Shown: positions 2,471 to 22,185 of the stretch, one piece after another
How positions within the stretch are numbered: the stretch's first letter is position 1
Layout of the letters: each line of letters opens with the position of its first letter
NCBI GenBank assembly: GCA_022842285.1
Contig: JALHPV010000042.1
Location: forward strand, 1 to 34,794
Length of the DNA: 34,794 nt
Reading direction: 5' to 3'
Source: Kofleriaceae bacterium
GTDB lineage: Bacteria > Myxococcota_A > Polyangia > Haliangiales > Haliangiaceae
The notes under the pieces: generated by a model
Told to the model about the DNA's origin: nothing
Seen by the model: only the letters and a program-made list of their open reading frames with translations
Database searches by the model: none
Position numbers and translations under genes: made by a program

Positions 2471-3622
2471 GTGGGAGCTGCACCGCCCGATCCTGCAGCC
2501 GCTGTCTCGCTGCCGCCCCCGGGCAAGCTGAAGCGGCTCGTCCAGCGCATCTGGTGGTTCCACTCGTTCTTCGCGCTGTTCTTCGGCGTGGGCGTGATGC
2601 TGTTCGCGCGGAACGGCCTCGCGCACGCGGACAAGCTGCTCATGGCGCTGTTCGTGTCGTGGCTCGTGATGTTCATCGCGCTGCGCTTCATCGTCGGTCC
2701 GGCGAATCGCAAGGAGAAGGAGCACGTCGCCCGCAAGGGCGTCCGCGTCGTCACGAACTACATCATCAAGCAGTTCTACCAGCAGATGTTCTTCTTCCTG
2801 ACGCCGCTCTACGCGTCGAGCGCGACGTGGTCGACCTCGTCATGGAACTGGTGGCTCGCGCCCGTGCTGCTCGTCTGCGCCGTCGTCTCGACGATGGATC
2901 TCGTCTTCGACAACTTCATCATGGAGCGCCGGCTCCTCGCGTCGGCGATGTACGGGCTCGCGATGTTCGCGCTCCTGAACGTGATGCTGCCGCTCGTCGT
3001 CGGGCTCGATCACTTCACGGGCCTCGTGATCGCGGCCGCCGCCACCCCCGCGTCCGTCGCCGTCCTGTCCTTCTCGATCAAGCAGGTGCTCTCCCCGCAG
3101 GGGGCGCTCCTGACGGTCACGCTCACGGGGGCGCTCCTCGGCGGCGTGTGGGTCGGTCGGCGCTTCATTCCGCCCGTACCGCTCGCGATGACGGAGACGG
3201 CCATCGGTCACGGCACCCACAGCTCGTACGAGTGTCTGCCGCCCAGCAAGCACGTCCTGCGATCGAATCAGCTCGACGGGCTGCGCTGCGGCTCGCTCTT
3301 GCGCGAGCCCGGCGGCCTCAAGGAGACCGTCGTCCATGTCTGGCGCCACGACGGCACCATCATCGACAAGATCACGCCGACGCGGGTCCCGTGCGATGGC
3401 GAGGGCGACGTGTTCGTCAGTACGCTGCCGCTCGAGCGCCTGCCGGCGAACCCGACGGGCAAGTGGTCCTGCACGACGGAGACGTACGGCGGCCAGCTCG
3501 TGGGCATCCGCAAGTTCGAGGTGCTGCAGCCCGTCGGCGAGCAACCGAAGCTCCCCGAGGGCTATCAGCCAAACTCGGGGTCGGGGTCAGCAGCGCCGGG
3601 TTCGGGCTCGGCGACCAAGTAG
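2471..3622 (+). CDS. DUF5924/DUF2914-type polytopic membrane protein
   Basis: 383 residues, starting at a GTG 20 bp after the aminotransferase stop. The first roughly 240 residues contain about seven hydrophobic segments (for example near 27-46, 55-76, 126-146, 160-180, 185-205 and 215-235). The C-terminal ~130 residues form a soluble domain with HVWRHDGTIIDK, cysteines near 257, 275, 312 and 339, and GKWSCTTETYGGQLVG, which resembles DUF2914. The last 20 residues are a Gly/Ser/Ala linker. The domain pair (DUF5924 membrane part plus DUF2914) is from memory of the family; its function is unknown. It converges on the 3625-4620 gene with only two bases between stops, so no conventional terminator fits. 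Confidence 0.75.
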   Translation: MGAAPPDPAAAVSLPPPGKLKRLVQRIWWFHSFFALFFGVGVMLFARNGLAHADKLLMALFVSWLVMFIALRFIVGPANRKEKEHVARKGVRVVTNYIIKQFYQQMFFFLTPLYASSATWSTSSWNWWLAPVLLVCAVVSTMDLVFDNFIMERRLLASAMYGLAMFALLNVMLPLVVGLDHFTGLVIAAAATPASVAVLSFSIKQVLSPQGALLTVTLTGALLGGVWVGRRFIPPVPLAMTETAIGHGTHSSYECLPPSKHVLRSNQLDGLRCGSLLREPGGLKETVVHVWRHDGTIIDKITPTRVPCDGEGDVFVSTLPLERLPANPTGKWSCTTETYGGQLVGIRKFEVLQPVGEQPKLPEGYQPNSGSGSAAPGSGSATK

Positions 3623-3624
3623 CG

Positions 3625-4620
3625 CTAGATACGGAAGGCGACGAACAGGTTCGGGCCGAACGAGCCCGCCTTCGAGAGGTCATCGAAGCCGAGGCCAAAG
3701 CCGAGGTCGAGGAACCGCTTGGGCGAGTGCAGGAGGCCCGCGCGGAGGGCCGTGGTCAGGCCGCCGAAGCCGGTGTCGCCACGGTTCGACGAGAAGTCGT
3801 CCATGATCACCGAGAAGCGCAGGCTGAACGACAGGTTCGGCTTGTGCTGGTAGATGCCGTAACCACTGAGGCGGAGGTCGCCGCGGCTCTGCGTCGTGTT
3901 CGTGTTGTAGAGCGCGGCGAGCGCGGCGTTCTGCAACTCGTTCTGATACTGCGGCGCGAACTTGCTGATCTTGATGTTCAAGAGGTCATCGAGGCCGCCG
4001 ATCGTGAAGCGATCGAAGATGAACCGCATCGGCGCGCCGAGCTGCAGCGAGACGGCGACGGGATCGATGTAGACGGGGACGCCGACCTTGATGCCGATCC
4101 AGTCCTGGAGCAGCACGGTCACGTCGAGGCCGACGGCCTTGCCGGGATGGAAGCCGACCTTGTCGCTCGTGACCGAGGCCGGGTCGTCGTAGATCGATCC
4201 GAGGACGTAGTTGAGCCCGAGCTGGATGGTGCGGGTGATGCCGTAGCGAGCGCGTAGGGTGGCGGTCGCCTGGAACTCGTCGACGTTGAGGTGCGGATCG
4301 ATCGCGACCTCCGACATGTTCGCCGGCAACGTGATCGGGCGGAGGGCGTCCTCGATCGGATAGCCCGAACGCGCTTCCTTCTGGGGAACCGCGATGACCG
4401 GCGCCTCGCCGATCACCTTGGGGGCGTCGGGGTCCTCGCTCGTGCCTTCCATGTCGGACGGCGGTGGATCCTCCGTCATCTCGACGGGGGCTCCGTCCGC
4501 GGGCGGCGCGGCAGGATCTCCGGCGGGGGCCGGGTCGGGCTGTGCCAGAGCGATCCCAGACGAGGCGACCAGGCACACGCTCAGGAGTGAAGCGATTCGG
4601 ACCGACATGGCGCGGACCAT
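3625..4620 (-). CDS. Outer-membrane beta-barrel-type protein with signal peptide
   Basis: 331 residues. A Sec-type signal (SVRIASLLSVCLVASSGIALA, cleavage about residue 26) precedes a Pro/Ala/Asp-rich linker to about 75. The rest is alternating amphipathic strand sequence (TATLRARYGITRTIQLGLNY, FGGLTTALRAGLL, LDLGFGLGFDDL) ending ...FVAFRI. The strand pattern suggests a barrel, but the final residue is Ile rather than the usual Phe, so membrane insertion is inferred. ATG at 4608 (fifth codon) is an equally good start. It is the last gene of the leftward block from 9420; 39 bp separate it from the microprotein. No specific family recognised. Confidence 0.7.
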   Translation of the reverse strand: MVRAMSVRIASLLSVCLVASSGIALAQPDPAPAGDPAAPPADGAPVEMTEDPPPSDMEGTSEDPDAPKVIGEAPVIAVPQKEARSGYPIEDALRPITLPANMSEVAIDPHLNVDEFQATATLRARYGITRTIQLGLNYVLGSIYDDPASVTSDKVGFHPGKAVGLDVTVLLQDWIGIKVGVPVYIDPVAVSLQLGAPMRFIFDRFTIGGLDDLLNIKISKFAPQYQNELQNAALAALYNTNTTQSRGDLRLSGYGIYQHKPNLSFSLRFSVIMDDFSSNRGDTGFGGLTTALRAGLLHSPKRFLDLGFGLGFDDLSKAGSFGPNLFVAFRI

Positions 4621-4659
4621 ACACGAGATCCGAGATCGCCTTGCAAGGGCTCCAGACGA

Positions 4660-4806
4660 CTAGCCGTGGCCAATCCACCGGGTCTTGGTGGGGCGCGGCA
4701 GGACGGAGGACGGGCCCGGCACGGGGACGACATGCCGGACCGTGAGGACCGCGGCGCCGGCCGTCACGAGCGCGAGGAACATGCGCCGGGTGGGCTTCTC
4801 GGTCAT
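4660..4806 (-). CDS. 48-residue Tat-signal-like microprotein
   Basis: Small gene whose ATG overlaps the stop of the amidase gene (ATGA at 4803-4806). The product begins MTEKPTRRMFLALVTAGAAV, matching the twin-arginine pattern S/T-R-R-x-F-L followed by a hydrophobic helix, then a Pro-rich tail (HVVPVPGPSSVLPRPTKTRW) and a short end. It is essentially a signal or anchor sequence with no mature domain. Coupled position, a proper stop and a clean Tat-like motif argue it is real. It could instead be the remnant of a longer Tat substrate. Function unknown. Confidence 0.6.
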   Translation of the reverse strand: MTEKPTRRMFLALVTAGAAVLTVRHVVPVPGPSSVLPRPTKTRWIGHG

Positions 4807-6842
4807 GGCGTCGGGGCTCCGCACTCGGGCGCATCGAAGCCTTCGACGAGCTCCTTCAGCGTGATCTGATCGTTGCACGGATCGACCTCGACATCGGTCG
4901 ACGCCTTCATCGACGAGCCATCGACGTCGTTCAGATCGTCGGTCACGCCATCCGGCGTCTCGAGCGCGAGCTCCCTTTTGAAGTCGTTCGTACCCGCCTT
5001 CTTGGCCGCGGCCTGGGCCTCGCGCATCTCCACGTTGAACCACGAGACGAACGCGACCGGGTGGTAGTGGTAGACGATGCCGTCCGGGGGCAGCTTGGCG
5101 TGCTGGGCGACGGGCCCGCTCCACCAGAGGCCGGGCTTGATCTGCTCCTCGTACTGAGCGTCGATCTCGTCCGGCTTCTTGTCGGCCATGTCCTTGGGCA
5201 GCTTCAGGGACTCGGGCCAGCTCGGCTCGTACGTCCACTCCGACACGTTGTACGTGACGAAGTAGCGCGTGCCGGCCGCGGAGCCCGCGCCGTAGAACGC
5301 CGCCAGCTCCTCGCGCTTCAACATGCCGTCGGAGTTGCTGTCGATGAGTCCGATGATCTCCGACGCGTCGGCGAAGCGGCCACCGCCACTACCGTCGATC
5401 ACCTTCCACGGCGAGCTGGGAATCGAGCCCTCGGGGAAGAGATCCGACTTGGAGAACAGCTCGACATGCACCTGCGCCCGCGACAGGTCGTCCGGGCCGG
5501 CCGTGCCGACGTGGCCGATGACCGAGCCGGCCTCGATCGCCTCGTCGAGGCCGATCACGCCGTTGTCGAACTTCGTGCCGCCCTTCTTCCAGCCGTCACT
5601 CTCGAGCCACGTCGCGGGCTTCGCGGCCTTGAGCGTCGGCTCGTCGCCGAGGTGCATGTACAGCGTGTAGAACTCGACCTTGCGCTCGCCGAGCGAGAGC
5701 TGGTGGCGGAGCAGCACGAAGTTCGTCGAGCCGACGGCCGTGTTCGGGCCCATCCGCACGGCCACCACGCGACCCGGGAACGGAGCGAAGACCGGATGTC
5801 CGACCTCACCGGTCAGGTGGACCCCGCCGTGCCAGAGGCGCGACTCGCCCCAGGGGCCGACAGGGAAGAAGCCCGCGTCGGCCTTCCCCTCGTTCATCGC
5901 GAACAGCTTCGCGCTGCCGGCCTCGACCTCGGACTTCGTGCCCGGGATGATCGGGCGGTGGACGGTGGTGTCCTTCGGCGGCGGCTCGGGCCAGACGACG
6001 TAGCAGAAGTCGCCGCGCAGCTTCCGGCAGAAGTCCGCGAAGTCGAAGTACCCCGGATCCCATTTGCGCTGGGTCAGGTGGTAGTGCCCGATGAACCCCG
6101 AGAACGCGGCGGACGCCGACTCGGGCATCGTGTCCCACGTCTGGACGCCGGGGCTCTTCTGCGGATACTCGGCGGGCAGGTTGGGGAAGATGCCGGTCAG
6201 CGCCTTCGAGAGCGCGGCGAGCGAGCGGTACTGCTCGTCGGTGTAGTCGAAGGCGAGGTACGTGTGCCCGTTGATCTTGCAGGGCTTCTCGCTGCGCTGT
6301 GGGCCGAACCGGTTGCCACTGTAGTAGTTCGGCTCCTTCTTCGCGTCGCCGCGGTTGCAGAGCTCGACCCCGATCGTATTGGTGTTCGCGTTCGCGGCGT
6401 GGAACGCCATCAGCGCGAGGTTCAGCGTCTGATAGATCGTGCCGTCGTTATCGATCAGGAAGTGACACGAGAAGCCTCGCTCGTTCTGGAGCACGTCGAA
6501 GCACATCGCCGACGTCGCGCAGCCGTCGTGATGAAACACGAACTGCTTGATGAGAGGACGCACGGCCTCGAACGGCGCCCGTTCCCCTTCGCCCCACTTG
6601 CCACCACGCAGGGCGGGACGGGAGGAGTACCGCTTCGCGCTCCGCCGGGGCACCTTGGGCGACCACGGCAACTGGCCACCCTCGGCCGCCATCTGGACAC
6701 AGCCGTGCGCGCCGTTGACCGACTGACAGTAGAGCGACGCCGCGTTCCACTTCGGCCCTTCCGTGTAGTTGATGATCGGCGCGTCGATCGTGATCTCTTG
6801 CGCGCCGATGAGCAACTTGCCGCTGGGCTTCCAGATGGTCAT
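4803..6842 (-). CDS. Amidase_2 / M23-like / EF-hand fusion protein
   Basis: 679 residues. Residues about 95-275 resemble N-acetylmuramoyl-L-alanine amidase (Amidase_2/PGRP): His104-His105 at the strand end, HFLIDNDGTIYQ, NTIGVELCNRGD, and His253/His255 followed by KWDPGYFDF. Residues about 320-480 resemble a LytM/M23 fold (HPVFAPFPGRVVAV, YTLYMHLG with His397, QVHVELF with His459), but the usual H-x-x-x-D is H338-x-x-x-H342 and the first His of H-x-H is Gln457, so this half may be inactive. A canonical EF-hand loop, DSNSDGMLKREE, lies at 501-512. No signal peptide is visible after the 6842 start, 10 bp from the VWA-FHA gene. Expected role: peptidoglycan amide hydrolysis, with location uncertain. 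Confidence 0.8.
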   Translation of the reverse strand: MTIWKPSGKLLIGAQEITIDAPIINYTEGPKWNAASLYCQSVNGAHGCVQMAAEGGQLPWSPKVPRRSAKRYSSRPALRGGKWGEGERAPFEAVRPLIKQFVFHHDGCATSAMCFDVLQNERGFSCHFLIDNDGTIYQTLNLALMAFHAANANTNTIGVELCNRGDAKKEPNYYSGNRFGPQRSEKPCKINGHTYLAFDYTDEQYRSLAALSKALTGIFPNLPAEYPQKSPGVQTWDTMPESASAAFSGFIGHYHLTQRKWDPGYFDFADFCRKLRGDFCYVVWPEPPPKDTTVHRPIIPGTKSEVEAGSAKLFAMNEGKADAGFFPVGPWGESRLWHGGVHLTGEVGHPVFAPFPGRVVAVRMGPNTAVGSTNFVLLRHQLSLGERKVEFYTLYMHLGDEPTLKAAKPATWLESDGWKKGGTKFDNGVIGLDEAIEAGSVIGHVGTAGPDDLSRAQVHVELFSKSDLFPEGSIPSSPWKVIDGSGGGRFADASEIIGLIDSNSDGMLKREELAAFYGAGSAAGTRYFVTYNVSEWTYEPSWPESLKLPKDMADKKPDEIDAQYEEQIKPGLWWSGPVAQHAKLPPDGIVYHYHPVAFVSWFNVEMREAQAAAKKAGTNDFKRELALETPDGVTDDLNDVDGSSMKASTDVEVDPCNDQITLKELVEGFDAPECGAPTP

Positions 6843-6852
6843 GAGCGGCTTT

Positions 6853-8391
6853 CTATTGTGCCAAGAAACAAAATTCCGTCGAGCCGATCTTCACGGTCAT
6901 GCCGTGCGTCAGGACGTACTCGGTGATGCGAGTCCCGTTGATGTAGGTCCCGTTCGTCGAGTTCCGGTCGTAGATGGTGATCTGGTCGCCGGACACCGCG
7001 AACTGGACGTGGTGTGACGACGTATAGCCATCGTCGAGCACGAAGCTGTTGTCGGGCGCCTTGCCGACGGTGAAGCCATGCGCGATCGGGATGACGCGGC
7101 CCGCGGAGGGACCGGCCATCACGAACATGCGGGGCCCCGTGACGGCGACGGGCGCGGCCGCGACGGGGGCGGGCGGAACGCTGCCGGGGACGGGCGCTGC
7201 CGGCGGGACGCTGCCCGGAACCGCGAAGCCCTGGGTTGGCTTCGGCTGCTTGGGGCGGCCCTTGAGCGACAGCAGATACGCGATGATCACGAGCACGACG
7301 AGGCCGCCGAGGGCGATCCCACCGACGAGCACGATCCAGCCGACGATGCCGCGGCTCTCGGGGGCGCGCACCTGCACGCATCCCGCCGTGCCGCAGTAGC
7401 CGGTCTCGCACTCCGTACCGCTGCACCCTTGCGCCGGGATCTTGACCTCGGTGGTCGCCTCGACGTTCACGCGTCCACTCAGCGCGACGGTGACCTTCTT
7501 GTTGTCGAGCTCGCCCGCGCCGACGAGATACGTCAGCACGTACTGCTTCATGATCTGGTCCCGGACCTGGGCGAAGTTGGTGGTCCAGCCCGTCGCGAGG
7601 CGCACCCACCGGAACGCGCCCCCGGATCGCTTGGAGAGCTCGCCGAGCGCGAGGAGCGGACGCCGGATGTCATCGGGAGCGAAGCCAATCGTGTGGATGC
7701 GTACGCCTTCCTTGGCCGCGCGCTCGCCGAGGCGGGTGACGCGCTCGCGATCCGCCGAGAGGTCACGGCCATCGCCGATGACGAGCACGATCTTGCGGAC
7801 GGGGCGCCCCGCCGGCTCGGACTTCGCCTTCTTGAGCAGCTTCATCGCGTGCTCGACCGCATCGAGCAACACGGGGTCACTCGCGCTGCTGTCGCTGGAG
7901 AGCCCCTTCACGGCGTTCACCGCCGTCTTCACGTCGACGAGCTTGCCCGGGGTCACCGACTCGCCGTAGCCGATGACCGCGAACTGGCCGCGCTCGCCGA
8001 TGCCGCCCAGGCCGCCGAGGAGCTGGGTCTCGAGACCCTCGAGGATCTGGGGGAGGGCAGGTTCGTACTGGGAGGTCGTCTGCACGACGATCGCGAGCGC
8101 GAGGTCGCCGCTCGTGGCGCCGTAGTAGCCGATGAACGGATCCGCGAGCTTGGTGCTACCCGCCGTGACGGCAAAGTCCTCGGGCTCGACGGGCAGAAAC
8201 GCGCCCGTCAGCGAGTACGCCGATACGAACACGCGCAGCGTCGCGCCCCCGAGGATGCTCGGCTCGAGCTCGGCCCGGTCGGTGACCACGCGGTACGTCG
8301 AGCTCGTGGCGGCGTCCTCGCCGTCGTCGGCCCGGGCGGGAGCCGGTCCGGCGAGCACGAGCGCGAGGCACGCGAGACAGCCCAGGCGCAT
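6853..8391 (-). CDS. VWA-FHA transmembrane protein
   Basis: 512 residues with a signal peptide (cleavage near ARA, residue 21). A von Willebrand A-like domain spans about 96-290; its MIDAS entry is VVQTTSQ instead of D-x-S-x-S, so metal binding there is doubtful. A four-cysteine cluster lies at about 323-338, a transmembrane helix at 349-374, a Pro/Val/Ala linker with two VPGSVPP repeats at 391-407, and an FHA domain at 421-509 with VGKAPDNSFVLDD, TSSHH and NSTNGTYINGTRI. The likely topology puts VWA outside and FHA, a phosphothreonine reader, in the cytoplasm. It sits 15 bp after the DUF1287 gene and 10 bp before the amidase, consistent with one operon. A Ser/Thr kinase partner is not in the window. 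Confidence 0.85.
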   Translation of the reverse strand: MRLGCLACLALVLAGPAPARADDGEDAATSSTYRVVTDRAELEPSILGGATLRVFVSAYSLTGAFLPVEPEDFAVTAGSTKLADPFIGYYGATSGDLALAIVVQTTSQYEPALPQILEGLETQLLGGLGGIGERGQFAVIGYGESVTPGKLVDVKTAVNAVKGLSSDSSASDPVLLDAVEHAMKLLKKAKSEPAGRPVRKIVLVIGDGRDLSADRERVTRLGERAAKEGVRIHTIGFAPDDIRRPLLALGELSKRSGGAFRWVRLATGWTTNFAQVRDQIMKQYVLTYLVGAGELDNKKVTVALSGRVNVEATTEVKIPAQGCSGTECETGYCGTAGCVQVRAPESRGIVGWIVLVGGIALGGLVVLVIIAYLLSLKGRPKQPKPTQGFAVPGSVPPAAPVPGSVPPAPVAAAPVAVTGPRMFVMAGPSAGRVIPIAHGFTVGKAPDNSFVLDDGYTSSHHVQFAVSGDQITIYDRNSTNGTYINGTRITEYVLTHGMTVKIGSTEFCFLAQ

Positions 8392-8406
8392 GGCGCGCCG
8401 AGCGTA

Positions 8407-9420
8407 TCAGTTACTGCGCGGCGGGATCCGAAAGCGATGCAGCACCGGCACGCTCCCCAGGAGATCCATTTCGGACTCGACGTACCCGACGGTCCAGTTG
8501 TTGACGACGAGGAGGTAGCCCGACTCGCCCATGGTGTCGGAGACGATACCGATGTGGTCGGGGCCCTTGCGGCTCGGGAACGTATCCATGAAGACGATGT
8601 CGCCGGGGCGGTATGGATCGCTCGCATCGTCGAGCGCGGCGGTGTGCTCCACCCACTGGCGCTTGAAGTAGGGCAGGAGCGTCTTCACGCGGCGGTGATC
8701 GATCTCGGGATTGCCGTTGCCCTTCACCATCGGATACGCGGAGCGCTTGGCCTTGATGTCCTTCTGGAGCGCCGTCTGGAGATCGATGCCGGCGTTCCGG
8801 ACCGCGCGAATGACGACGTCGGTGCAGACACCCTGGTCGCGGGGCACGTCGCCGTCGGGGTAGCTGATCTCCTTGTACCCCTCGGTGTAGGCCGCGCCGT
8901 TCAGCGTGACCTTCTTCGCGCCAACGAGCACGTCGAGCTCGTCCGGGATGCCATCGCGATCACGATCCGACGCGCCGGCGGTGGTGGTGATGCGATCGGC
9001 CGCCAGCAGCGGGGCGAGCTCGGCGCGGTCGCCCGGCCGCAGCGTCAGCACGTGCGGCCCCACCGTCAGCGTCGTGCTGCCCGTGAGCGGGTAGATCTTG
9101 CGCGGGTAGGTATCGATCGCGAGCACGAGGACCGCGTGATCGGCGTCGAGGGTGGCGGTCACGCGGCTCGGTGCGAGGTCAGGCGGAAGGGCGATCTGCA
9201 CCTGTGCATCGAGGTCGGCCCAGATGCCCTTGTCGGCGACACCGAGGCTGGTCTCCGGCTGCGCCGCGGGCGTCGACGGGCGATGGGTGGCGGGCCTGGG
9301 GCGTTCCGCCGCAGGTGGGACGGACTCCGAGCCAGGTGCGGGGGCGGCCTCGGCACTGCAACTGGCCGAAACCAGGAGGGAGATCGCGGCGAGCGAATAC
9401 CGGGAACCAAACGGCATCAT
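8407..9420 (-). CDS. DUF1287 family exported protein with a calcium-repeat segment
   Basis: 338 residues from ATG 9420; a second ATG is the next codon. The N-terminus (FGSRYSLAAISLLVSASCSA) is a signal peptide; Cys21 could be lipidated, but the preceding residues fit a lipobox poorly. After a disordered Pro/Ala stretch and a beta-rich region, a thrombospondin-3/EF-like segment DRDRDGIPDELD appears. The C-terminal half carries DUF1287 hallmarks: YPDGDVPRDQGVCTDVVIRA with Cys199, IDHRRVKTLLPYF, GDIVFMD and DHIGIVSD with His289. Cys plus His suggests an NlpC/P60-like hydrolase fold; the family has no settled activity that I know. First gene of the leftward block, with its promoter expected in 9421-9546. 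Confidence 0.82.
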   Translation of the reverse strand: MMPFGSRYSLAAISLLVSASCSAEAAPAPGSESVPPAAERPRPATHRPSTPAAQPETSLGVADKGIWADLDAQVQIALPPDLAPSRVTATLDADHAVLVLAIDTYPRKIYPLTGSTTLTVGPHVLTLRPGDRAELAPLLAADRITTTAGASDRDRDGIPDELDVLVGAKKVTLNGAAYTEGYKEISYPDGDVPRDQGVCTDVVIRAVRNAGIDLQTALQKDIKAKRSAYPMVKGNGNPEIDHRRVKTLLPYFKRQWVEHTAALDDASDPYRPGDIVFMDTFPSRKGPDHIGIVSDTMGESGYLLVVNNWTVGYVESEMDLLGSVPVLHRFRIPPRSN

Positions 9421-9791: not shown

Positions 9792-10862
9792 CTGCGGCTG
9801 CTCTGGTTTTGGTCCTGGCTGTGGCTCTGCGCGTGCGCTCCGCGCGCGCGTCCCACGCCGGCCGCGTCGTCGTCCCCGCGGATCGCGATCGTGGCCTCCG
9901 AGCGCGGAGCGGTCGGCGCCCGCCTCGTCGCGCTCGACGATGGTGGTAATCGCACCTTCGATCTGATCGCGACGGCCCGCGATGCCGGGCCCCTCCGCGA
10001 GTCCAACCCCACTGTCTCCCCCGACGGTCGCTGGGTGGTGTTCGCGTCGTCGCGGGAGGGCGACCTCCACCAGACGAAGCTGTGGATCGCCCCGCTCGAG
10101 GCAGATGCCGTCCCCCGGCGCCTGAACCCGCGCACGCCCGCGAGTGCGATCGAGAGTCATCCCGCGTGGACGTCCGATGGTCGCGCCGTCGTCTACGCGT
10201 CCACCATCGCCGGCACCTTCGATCTCTGGCGCGTGCCGGTCACGACCGGGGTCGCCGGGACGGCCGTGGCGCTGACCGATGCGGGCACGCACGAGCTGAC
10301 ACCCGCCCTCGCGCCCGATGGCTCGATCGCGTTCGCGGTGGTCTCGCTCGATGGCGCGAGTCATCTCGCGCTGCGCGCGCCCGATGGCCAGGTGTCCGCG
10401 CTCACGGCCGGGCCGAGCGATGTCGCGCCCACGTTCTCGCCCGATGGCGCGCAGCTCCTGTTCGCGCGCCCGGTCGCTCGCGAGGGCGGGCTCGTCGACG
10501 GCGACCTGTTCACGATGCGGCCGCACCCCGGCGCCGAACCGACCCGGCTCCTCGACGCCCCGTTCACCGACGAGAGTGGCCCGGTGATGTCGGCCGATGG
10601 CCGCTTCGTCTTCGCGACGTCGGTGTTGCGGGGCGAAGCGGACCGCGTGCTGTTCTCGTCGATCGTACACGTCGACCTGACCGAGACCCCGCGCGTCCTG
10701 CGCGTGCTGACTGATCGCCTCGGTGCGACACTACGCCTGACACCCGCTGTCGTCGTGCCTCATCTCGATCCGACAGCGCTGCATGCGGATCCAGAGTACG
10801 GTCCAGAGCTGAAGCGCATCATGGAAGCGATGATCGAAGCTCAGACGGCGGAGTCACCGTGA
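9792..10862 (+). CDS. TolB-like (PD40) beta-propeller protein, probable lipoprotein, rare start
   Basis: A propeller protein with recurring SPDGRWVVFASS-, TSDGRAVVYAST-, APDGSIAFAV-, SPDGAQLLFAR- and SADGRFVFATS-type PD40 units, placing it with TolB-like periplasmic proteins. The first canonical start is GTG 9891, but the frame is open upstream and encodes a lipoprotein-like leader, RLLWFWSWLWLCACAP, followed by a Pro/Ala linker. No ATG, GTG or TTG lies in frame between the leader and the upstream region, so CTG 9792 (or CTG 9798) is proposed. No Shine-Dalgarno is visible; coupling to the 9777 stop is possible. A frameshift or sequence error near 9780 would be an alternative. Its stop overlaps the start of the next gene (TGATG). 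Confidence 0.75.
   Translation: MRLLWFWSWLWLCACAPRARPTPAASSSPRIAIVASERGAVGARLVALDDGGNRTFDLIATARDAGPLRESNPTVSPDGRWVVFASSREGDLHQTKLWIAPLEADAVPRRLNPRTPASAIESHPAWTSDGRAVVYASTIAGTFDLWRVPVTTGVAGTAVALTDAGTHELTPALAPDGSIAFAVVSLDGASHLALRAPDGQVSALTAGPSDVAPTFSPDGAQLLFARPVAREGGLVDGDLFTMRPHPGAEPTRLLDAPFTDESGPVMSADGRFVFATSVLRGEADRVLFSSIVHVDLTETPRVLRVLTDRLGATLRLTPAVVVPHLDPTALHADPEYGPELKRIMEAMIEAQTAESP

Positions 10863-22110: not shown

Positions 22111-22185
<75 letters not shown>

What the first reader, a model, noticed from the sequence alone, without database searches (positions are those of the whole stretch)
3625..9420. Five-gene envelope module: DUF1287 / VWA-FHA / amidase-M23-EF / Tat microprotein / barrel
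Five leftward genes with gaps of 15, 10, -4 and 39 bp combine a putative Cys-His hydrolase (DUF1287), a membrane protein that could sense phosphothreonine inside through FHA and ligands outside through VWA, a peptidoglycan amidase fusion, a Tat-like microprotein and an outer-membrane-type protein. I know of no described system with this set. A signalling-controlled cell-wall remodelling or prey-lysis device is one reading.
Basis: partly seen in the sequence, partly recalled or inferred. Interest (0 to 1): 0.62.

Follow-up and report, generated by a model that had tools for sequence, protein, structure and literature searches.

The report
Injection-linked wall-cutting enzyme with Tat microprotein
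A conserved five-gene cluster in soil myxobacteria makes a cell-wall-cutting enzyme related to bacterial injection-system weapons, together with a tiny export-signal protein and three envelope proteins, which suggests that it serves the cell's syringe-like injection machine.

Summary
In detail: five leftward genes at 3625-9420 with gaps of 15, 10, -4 and 39 bp. The module is real. Of 39 related loci, 32 also hold a VWA(-FHA) gene and 20 hold all five genes, in 4 of them with the outer two inverted. The 'Tat microprotein' is a conserved family: twin Arg, C-terminal WIGH, and a start codon overlapping the amidase stop in 23 of 25 loci.

The amidase-'M23'-EF protein is an AmpD-type amidase fused to a module with WHxxxH, partly colinear with effector-like proteins, one beside PAAR and baseplate genes. 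It resembles the published T6SS cargo domain WHIX. In three relatives it shares a contig with T6SS genes. No T6SS sheath was found in this genome, which has an eCIS. Over 377 genomes, 43 of 45 with the enzyme have a PF04984 sheath, against 125 of 332 without (not corrected for descent).

Best reading: a peptidoglycan-cutting cargo or companion of a contractile injection system, the microprotein being its membrane partner (immunity peptide, or Tat signal in trans). VWA ligand sensing and FHA phosphothreonine sensing are doubtful: key residues are replaced. The last gene is an outer-membrane barrel by fold. New variant of a known kind.

The parts
8407..9420 (-). DUF1287 protein, 337 aa; papain-like candidate with invariant C199, H289, N307/N308; Ca-binding-type loop DxDxDGxxDxxD at residues 152-163; lipobox-like Cys at residue 21
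   Evidence: Pfam 2.1e-41; alignment of 14; catalytic and lipoprotein roles inferred
6853..8391 (-). VWA - four conserved Cys - membrane span - FHA protein, 512 aa
   Evidence: Pfam; alignment of 20
4803..6842 (-). AMI: Amidase_2 plus WHIX-like module with EF-hand, 679 aa, no signal peptide by eye
6051..6551 (-). AmpD-type amidase domain of AMI (residues 98-264), H104, E160, H253, K260, D262 invariant in 20 of 20
5649..5891 (-). First WHIX-like region (about residues 318-398) with W337-H338-GGV-H342
   Evidence: WHIX motif from PMC12135965
5043..5405 (-). Second WHIX-like region (about residues 480-600): EF-hand loop, SEW and HYHP motifs
   Evidence: significant in two of three effector-like ORFs
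4660..4806 (-). Microprotein, 48 aa: twin-Arg signal-like N-terminus, short linker, C-terminal WIGHG; start overlaps the AMI stop (ATGA)
3625..4620 (-). Outer-membrane beta-barrel protein, 331 aa, with a low-confidence N-terminal stretch
   Evidence: 17 homologues aligned

Best explanation
The cluster is a peptidoglycan-hydrolase module linked to contractile injection systems. Shown by sequence: the large enzyme (AMI) joins an AmpD-type amidase to a WHIX-like module and has no signal peptide by eye; it is overlapped by a gene for a microprotein with a twin-Arg signal-like start and a WIGH tail; both travel with a VWA-membrane-FHA protein. Inferred: AMI is made in the cytoplasm and loaded through its WHIX-like module onto an injection-system spike (a T6SS in some relatives; here the eCIS, since no T6SS sheath was found), and cuts the amide bond between stem peptide and glycan after delivery. 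The microprotein sits in the inner membrane, N-in and C-out, and its periplasmic WIGH tail holds or neutralises AMI (immunity-like). VWA-FHA is the membrane regulator or anchor. The DUF1287 protein and the barrel are envelope accessories of the Kofleriaceae version.
For: AMI residues ~315-600 match three effector-like ORFs at 1.1e-23, 1.6e-23 and 8.1e-16 in a set of 237 ORFs, one just after PAAR and baseplate-V genes with TssF and gp25 nearby; the amidase part alone matches none of them. WHxxxH is invariant in 20 of 20. T6SS genes share the AMI contig in L070, L071, L072, and in L070 and L071 AMI and microprotein lie in the T6SS gene row. PF04984 sheath in 43 of 45 AMI genomes against 125 of 332 others (p 1e-14); the exceptions are G035 (its AMI is in a T6SS row) and G128. 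Controls: VipB 10 of 45 against 59 of 332 (p 0.54); DUF1287 without AMI 8 of 18 with sheath (p 0.62). Own eCIS: two sheath genes, Pvc16_N and gp19-type tube on contig C109. Microprotein overlaps the AMI stop in 23 of 25 loci, the layout of effector and immunity genes.
Against: No AMI locus fetched carries the eCIS genes used as queries, and AMI and sheath are on different contigs in the rows I compared. The association is not corrected for descent; 125 sheath genomes lack AMI, and among near relatives G011 has the sheath but no AMI. The microprotein has no conserved domain beyond signal and tail, does not diversify as immunity proteins do, and was not found in 10 of 37 testable loci. The second WHIX-like region is weak in one of the three effector-like ORFs (i-E 0.12). 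AMI lacks the C-terminal toxic domain that most WHIX proteins carry (96.5%).
Confidence: 0.45

Rival explanations
1. Tat in trans. The microprotein is a free-standing Tat signal: its WIGH tail binds folded AMI in the cytoplasm and carries it through the Tat pore as a hitchhiker. AMI then opens the cell's own peptidoglycan where an injection system is assembled, fired or released, under VWA-FHA control.
For: RR invariant in 24 of 24 rows, S or T before it in 22 of 24, F or L two places after it in 24 of 24 (RR was not used to choose these rows). A 48-80 aa peptide with nothing to fold has no obvious need of Tat unless it carries a folded partner (inference). AMI has no signal of its own; TatC is present; hitchhiker export is known for other enzymes (PMC10924467, passages).
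Against: No microprotein found in 10 of 37 testable loci, where AMI also starts without a signal. The fold of a natural microprotein-AMI stretch showed no docking, but the microprotein part had pLDDT about 30, so it says nothing.
Confidence: 0.28
2. Lysis module. AMI is an endolysin-like enzyme, the microprotein a holin-like membrane peptide, DUF1287 protein and barrel help to open the envelope; together they lyse the producer to release eCIS particles.
For: AMI matches phage endolysin families (phrog_1493, 1.5e-14); no signal peptide; eCIS co-occurrence.
Against: The strict twin Arg and WIGH tail are not holin features (recalled); no spanin pair recognised; no phage record matches AMI.
Confidence: 0.1
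3. Plain cell-wall maintenance module with no part in injection systems; its link to CIS genes is shared ancestry and lifestyle.
For: Mostly one copy per genome (tandem copies in G020), stable neighbours PD40, aminotransferase, DUF5924 in many loci, normal amidase residues.
Against: Effector-like module, T6SS rows in relatives, sheath association not shared by DUF1287 or VipB.
Confidence: 0.17

Closest known systems
WHIX-domain T6SS cargo effectors (PMC12135965; section 6 read, passages)
   Same: WHxxxH motif, two-part region, peptidoglycan enzyme fused to it, no signal peptide by eye, adjacent gene with an export-type signal; the paper's table lists one AmpD-like and one PGRP N-terminal fusion
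   Different: No C-terminal toxic domain; no T6SS sheath found in this genome; partner is a 48-80 aa peptide; travels with VWA-FHA, DUF1287 and barrel genes. The authors' WHIX model was not at hand
TseP of Aeromonas (PMC11893102; passages)
   Same: Amidase activity and an EF-hand in a T6SS effector with a cognate immunity protein
   Different: TseP has a C-terminal lysozyme; sequence relation to AMI was not tested
Tat hitchhiker pairs such as hydrogenase subunits (PMC10924467; passages)
   Same: Signal-less enzyme next to a partner with a twin-Arg signal
   Different: Known carriers described there are enzyme subunits, not a 48-80 aa peptide; co-export is not shown here
FapF, outer-membrane transporter of functional amyloid
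   Same: Best PDB fold match of the barrel, E 2e-8
   Different: TM 0.49 by query length, 11-13% identity; fap neighbours were not looked for

Membership tests
WHIX T6SS effector | WHxxxH motif | tested here: met
   W337, H338, H342 in 20 of 20
WHIX T6SS effector | Second conserved region after the first | tested here: inconclusive
   Colinear match significant in L087 (3.7e-9) and L089 (1.3e-4), weak in L088 (0.12); these ORFs were called WHIX-like by motif, the published model was not available
WHIX T6SS effector | Genome encodes a T6SS (more than 98% of WHIX genomes) | tested here: not met
   No VipB in this genome; 10 of 45 AMI genomes have VipB. So it is not filed as a T6SS effector here, only as a protein with a WHIX-like module
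WHIX T6SS effector | Secretion by a contractile system | not testable with these tools
   Needs secretion assay
Tat signal | [ST]RRx[FL] and a following hydrophobic stretch | tested here: met
   RR 24 of 24, S/T before 22 of 24, F/L after 24 of 24; the NCBIfam Tat model scores below its cut-off
Tat signal | Tat-dependent export | not testable with these tools
   TatC present
AmpD-type amidase | Zinc and catalytic residues (positions recalled from AmpD) | tested here: met
   H104, E160, H253, K260, D262 in 20 of 20; AmpD is the best PDB fold match (model of a second AMI copy)
Phosphothreonine-binding FHA | Arg of the G-R motif (recalled) | tested here: not met
   Lys in 18 of 20
MIDAS-type VWA | DxSxS (recalled) | tested here: not met
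   Q or E in 19 of 20 at the first position
eCIS in this genome | Sheath, tube, Pvc16-type protein together | tested here: met
   Contig C109; the contig ends at 22 kb, so completeness is unknown
Outer-membrane beta-barrel | Barrel fold with membrane-protein matches | tested here: met

The most novel reading that the evidence does not exclude
The 48-80 residue microprotein is a trans-acting Tat signal: a peptide whose job is to clamp a folded, signal-less peptidoglycan amidase by a C-terminal WIGH tail and carry it across the inner membrane in the service of a contractile injection system. Export could then be switched on or off without touching the enzyme, and the WHIX-like module would serve eCIS as well as T6SS.
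Probability: 0.22. Interest if true: 0.8.

Novelty: new variant of a known kind. Interest (0 to 1): 0.6.

Why it matters
WHIX was described as T6SS-specific, with a T6SS in more than 98% of WHIX genomes. Here 35 of 45 Myxococcota genomes with the amidase-WHIX-like protein show no VipB, and 34 of those 35 have a PF04984 sheath. If borne out, eCIS would use, or be served by, the same class of wall-cutting cargo. The microprotein, easily missed by annotation because of its size, is a conserved family with an almost fixed partner: either an unusually small immunity peptide or a signal peptide that works in trans. Both can be tested in laboratory E. coli.

Tried and rejected
Genome-wide sorting tail: W-I-G-H-[C/F]-stop occurs once per genome in 15 of 36 genomes, each time just downstream of AMI, and the backward control pattern never matched. 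This genome (WIGHG) does not match that pattern.

Defence system: no PADLOC match up to E 0.1 for four of the five proteins; the microprotein was not scanned there. Phage origin: no phage record matches AMI at 1e-3. Promoters and terminators: 0 sigma-70-like sites and 1 terminator-like site on the other strand, no more than in shuffles; this says nothing about transcripts.

Docking by fold: a natural stretch of L062 (microprotein, TAG, second AMI copy, in one frame) was folded as one chain; AMI modelled well, the microprotein at pLDDT about 30, so no conclusion. An alignment with the microprotein rows was dropped because MAFFT smeared them over AMI.

Limits of the counts. The 24 rows were chosen by a pattern W[IVL]GH near the stop, so the tail's W, G and H are partly by selection; independently, 16 of 18 loci screened by a twin-Arg pattern alone ended in WIGH (the other two are L032, broken by a run of N, and L035). 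In L052 (WFGHY), L071 (WLGH inside the tail) and L075 (WIGHGAP) the microprotein was seen by eye. The search looked at most 500 bp downstream of AMI (less in L076). L074 and L077 hold truncated AMI and were not testable. L080-L084 (amidase domain only) were left out; L001-L040 were not counted with L041-L079 because many are the same contigs. L072 and L074 come from one genome and L066 and L068 are near-copies.

Near-relative table, mended: with E up to 1e-3 it is 21 both, 1 AMI only (G035), 2 sheath only (G011, G031), 12 neither (p 9e-7); by Pfam cut-off 20, 2 (G009, G035), 1 (G011), 13 (p 6e-7). My first table (21/1/1/13) mixed the two rules; the odds do not change. The 12 strong AMI genomes alone: 11 of 12 with sheath against 157 of 365 others (p 0.002). 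No test is corrected for descent.

AMI tree: the T6SS-linked rows lie outside the Kofleriaceae-type clade, but that split is not strongly supported (92/77), L072 and L075 are long branches, and shuffles as low as the observed count for the T6SS label were 114 of 500.

Full report
1. What is there. Pfam gives DUF1287 2.1e-41, FHA 1e-15, VWA 6.1e-6, Amidase_2 1.2e-19 and M23 1.6e-5 (below its cut-off), and nothing for the barrel. The barrel was modelled (mean pLDDT 80.5) and its best PDB matches are FapF, NanC, a COG4313 channel and OmpG, so 'outer-membrane-type' is right as to fold.

2. Is it conserved? AMI is in 22 of 36 genomes searched, own included. A scan of named genomes gave 44 loci; 39 of them (L041-L079) match more than the amidase domain. 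Their titles name Myxococcota, Deltaproteobacteria, Myxococcales or Kofleriaceae, apart from L050, L078 and L079, titled Proteobacteria. In those 39 loci a VWA or VWA-FHA gene lies within the locus in 32, DUF1287 in 21, the barrel in 23, the WIGH-type microprotein in 24 by pattern, and all five in 20. In 4 of these 20 (L055, L057, L059, L073) the barrel and DUF1287 genes are on the other strand while VWA-FHA, AMI and microprotein stay in line. So the core is three genes with two looser companions. PD40, aminotransferase and DUF5924 neighbours are often kept too.

3. The microprotein. Its start codon overlaps the AMI stop (ATGA or GTGA) in 23 of 25 loci, window included. In 24 aligned rows only the first residue, the two Arg and W-I-G-H are invariant; the residue before RR is S or T in 22 of 24 and the one two places after RR is F or L in 24 of 24. 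These rows were chosen by the tail, so the tail's W, G and H are partly by selection; screening by twin Arg alone gave the WIGH tail in 16 of 18 loci. The linker varies, and the last residue differs (C, W, A, F, Y, G, I). The tail pattern was found once per genome in 15 of 36 genomes, always just downstream of AMI. Variants were seen by eye in L052, L071 and L075; none was found in 10 of 37 testable loci. A TatC gene is present in this genome.

4. The enzyme. The 20 aligned AMI proteins show no signal peptide by eye (L039 is incomplete at its start). H104, E160, H253, K260 and D262 are invariant, and a model of the second AMI copy of L062 matches AmpD and AmpDh2 best, then M23 folds. The 'M23' part has WHxxxH where M23 peptidases have HxxxD (recalled). 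A protein search of plasmids found this part in 7 records of Paraburkholderia, Cupriavidus, Photobacterium and Capnocytophaga at 2e-6 to 2e-4. With a profile of AMI, ORFs from three of these regions match at 1.1e-23, 1.6e-23 and 8.1e-16 (237 ORFs searched), over a first region that is clear in all three and a second that is significant in two; the amidase part alone matches none. The Capnocytophaga ORF lies just after PAAR and baseplate-V genes, with TssF and gp25 on the other strand nearby. Relatives of the Cupriavidus ORF, annotated 'M23 family metallopeptidase' in Buttiauxella and Pantoea plasmids, overlap the next ORF by one base; no VgrG is annotated beside them. The literature describes such a domain: WHIX, bipartite, named for WHxxxH, sufficient for T6SS secretion, carrying peptidoglycan enzymes, with neighbours that mostly have signal peptides; its table has one AmpD-like and one PGRP fusion (PMC12135965; section 6 read, other passages). 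TseP, a T6SS amidase-lysozyme effector with an EF-hand, is a looser parallel (PMC11893102, passages).

5. Link to injection systems. In L070 (Myxococcales HKST-UBA02, the same contig as G035:C526) the one-strand row is VipAB-like, VWA, PPC-domain protein, AMI, microprotein, Hcp, TssE, TssF, TssG, ClpV, TssB, TssC. In L071 it is VWA, PPC-domain protein, a 192-aa ORF, AMI, microprotein, TssE, TssF, TssG. L072 has TssB-, TssC- and TssF-like genes and a VWA-FHA gene on the other strand of the AMI contig. Among L021-L084 and the window no other AMI locus matched the T6SS or eCIS queries (sheath, tube, Pvc16, Hcp, TssB, E, F, G, ClpV; spike, hub and PAAR were not among the queries). No VipB was found in this genome or in the seven other genomes of its family listed. 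This genome has an eCIS: two sheath genes, a Pvc16_N protein and a gp19-type tube on contig C109. A relative's eCIS also shows CIS_tube, hub and baseplate-V genes.

6. Co-occurrence. In 377 genomes of the phylum, AMI (E up to 1e-60) is in 45; 43 of these have a PF04984 sheath, against 125 of the 332 others (p 1e-14). The exceptions are G035, with AMI in a T6SS row, and G128. Twelve of the 45 score over 600 bits (11 of 12 with sheath; p 0.002 against the rest); 33 are distant (205-306 bits), and in 23 of these 33 the match ends by model position 426, after the first WHIX-like region. VipB is in 10 of 45 and 59 of 332 (p 0.54). DUF1287 without AMI has a sheath in 8 of 18 (p 0.62); DUF1287 with or without AMI in 20 of 31 (p 0.02, carried by the AMI genomes). 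Among the nearer 36 genomes the table is 21/1/2/12 by E-value and 20/2/1/13 by cut-off. None of this is corrected for descent, and 125 sheath genomes have no AMI.

7. The regulator. VWA-FHA has a signal-like start, VWA, four conserved Cys, a membrane span and FHA at the end. The first MIDAS motif is lost and the FHA Arg is Lys in 18 of 20 (motifs recalled). It may still bind partners, but ligand and phosphothreonine sensing cannot be assumed. VWA and FHA domains occur in known T6SS regulators (PpkA, Fha/TagH; recalled, my search for a paper with all terms found none), and VWA genes sit in the T6SS rows of L070 and L071, there without FHA.

8. How it most likely works. Shown: architecture, conservation, T6SS embedding in relatives, eCIS co-occurrence. 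Inferred: AMI is a peptidoglycan-cutting cargo or companion of an injection system, and the microprotein its inner-membrane partner with a periplasmic WIGH tail. As immunity peptide this fits the effector-immunity layout (0.45); as Tat signal in trans it fits the strict twin Arg on a peptide with nothing else to fold (0.28). Plain maintenance (0.17) and a lysis module (0.1) are less likely.

9. Novelty. The enzyme is a new variant of a known class: amidase plus WHIX-like module, no C-terminal toxin, mostly in genomes without VipB. In the library searched two papers hold WHIX and type VI secretion (the second seen as a listing only); the defining paper has no mention of eCIS. Searches for eCIS with amidase effectors gave one unrelated paper, Kofleriaceae with contractile injection none, and contractile injection system with amidase and Myxococcota one paper seen as a listing only (PMC12923769). 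Most subscription papers and all preprints are outside that library.

Noticed in passing
L062 8998-13208 (G020:C471): Tandem AMI copies with the microprotein between them, in frame with the second copy and separated from it by a TAG stop.
   Followed up: partly
window 8407-9420, residues 152-163: Invariant DxDxDGxxDxxD loop before the DUF1287 domain in 14 of 14 homologues, like a calcium-binding repeat; AMI has an EF-hand too.
   Followed up: no
L085, L090, L091: The eCIS of this family has two sheath paralogues, about 404 and 600 aa, some 3 kb apart.
   Followed up: partly
L070 4197-6002: A 601-aa protein with weak VipA and clear VipB similarity lies in the T6SS row beside separate TssB and TssC genes, as if a second, fused sheath protein.
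   Followed up: no
L070 7130-8203 and L071 1448-2539: A PPC-domain protein of about 360 aa stands between VWA and AMI only in the T6SS-linked loci.
   Followed up: no
window 2471-3622: DUF5924 plus DUF2914 membrane protein, convergent with the barrel gene and 2 bp from it; often kept beside the module.
   Followed up: no
window 9891-10862: PD40 (TolB-like propeller) ORF divergent from DUF1287, kept beside the module in many relatives.
   Followed up: no
L057 14992: A second WIGH-like tail match on the other strand (WIGRE), most likely chance.
   Followed up: no
window 22111-22185: The only tRNA gene found in the window: tRNA-Thr (CGT), minus strand.
   Followed up: no
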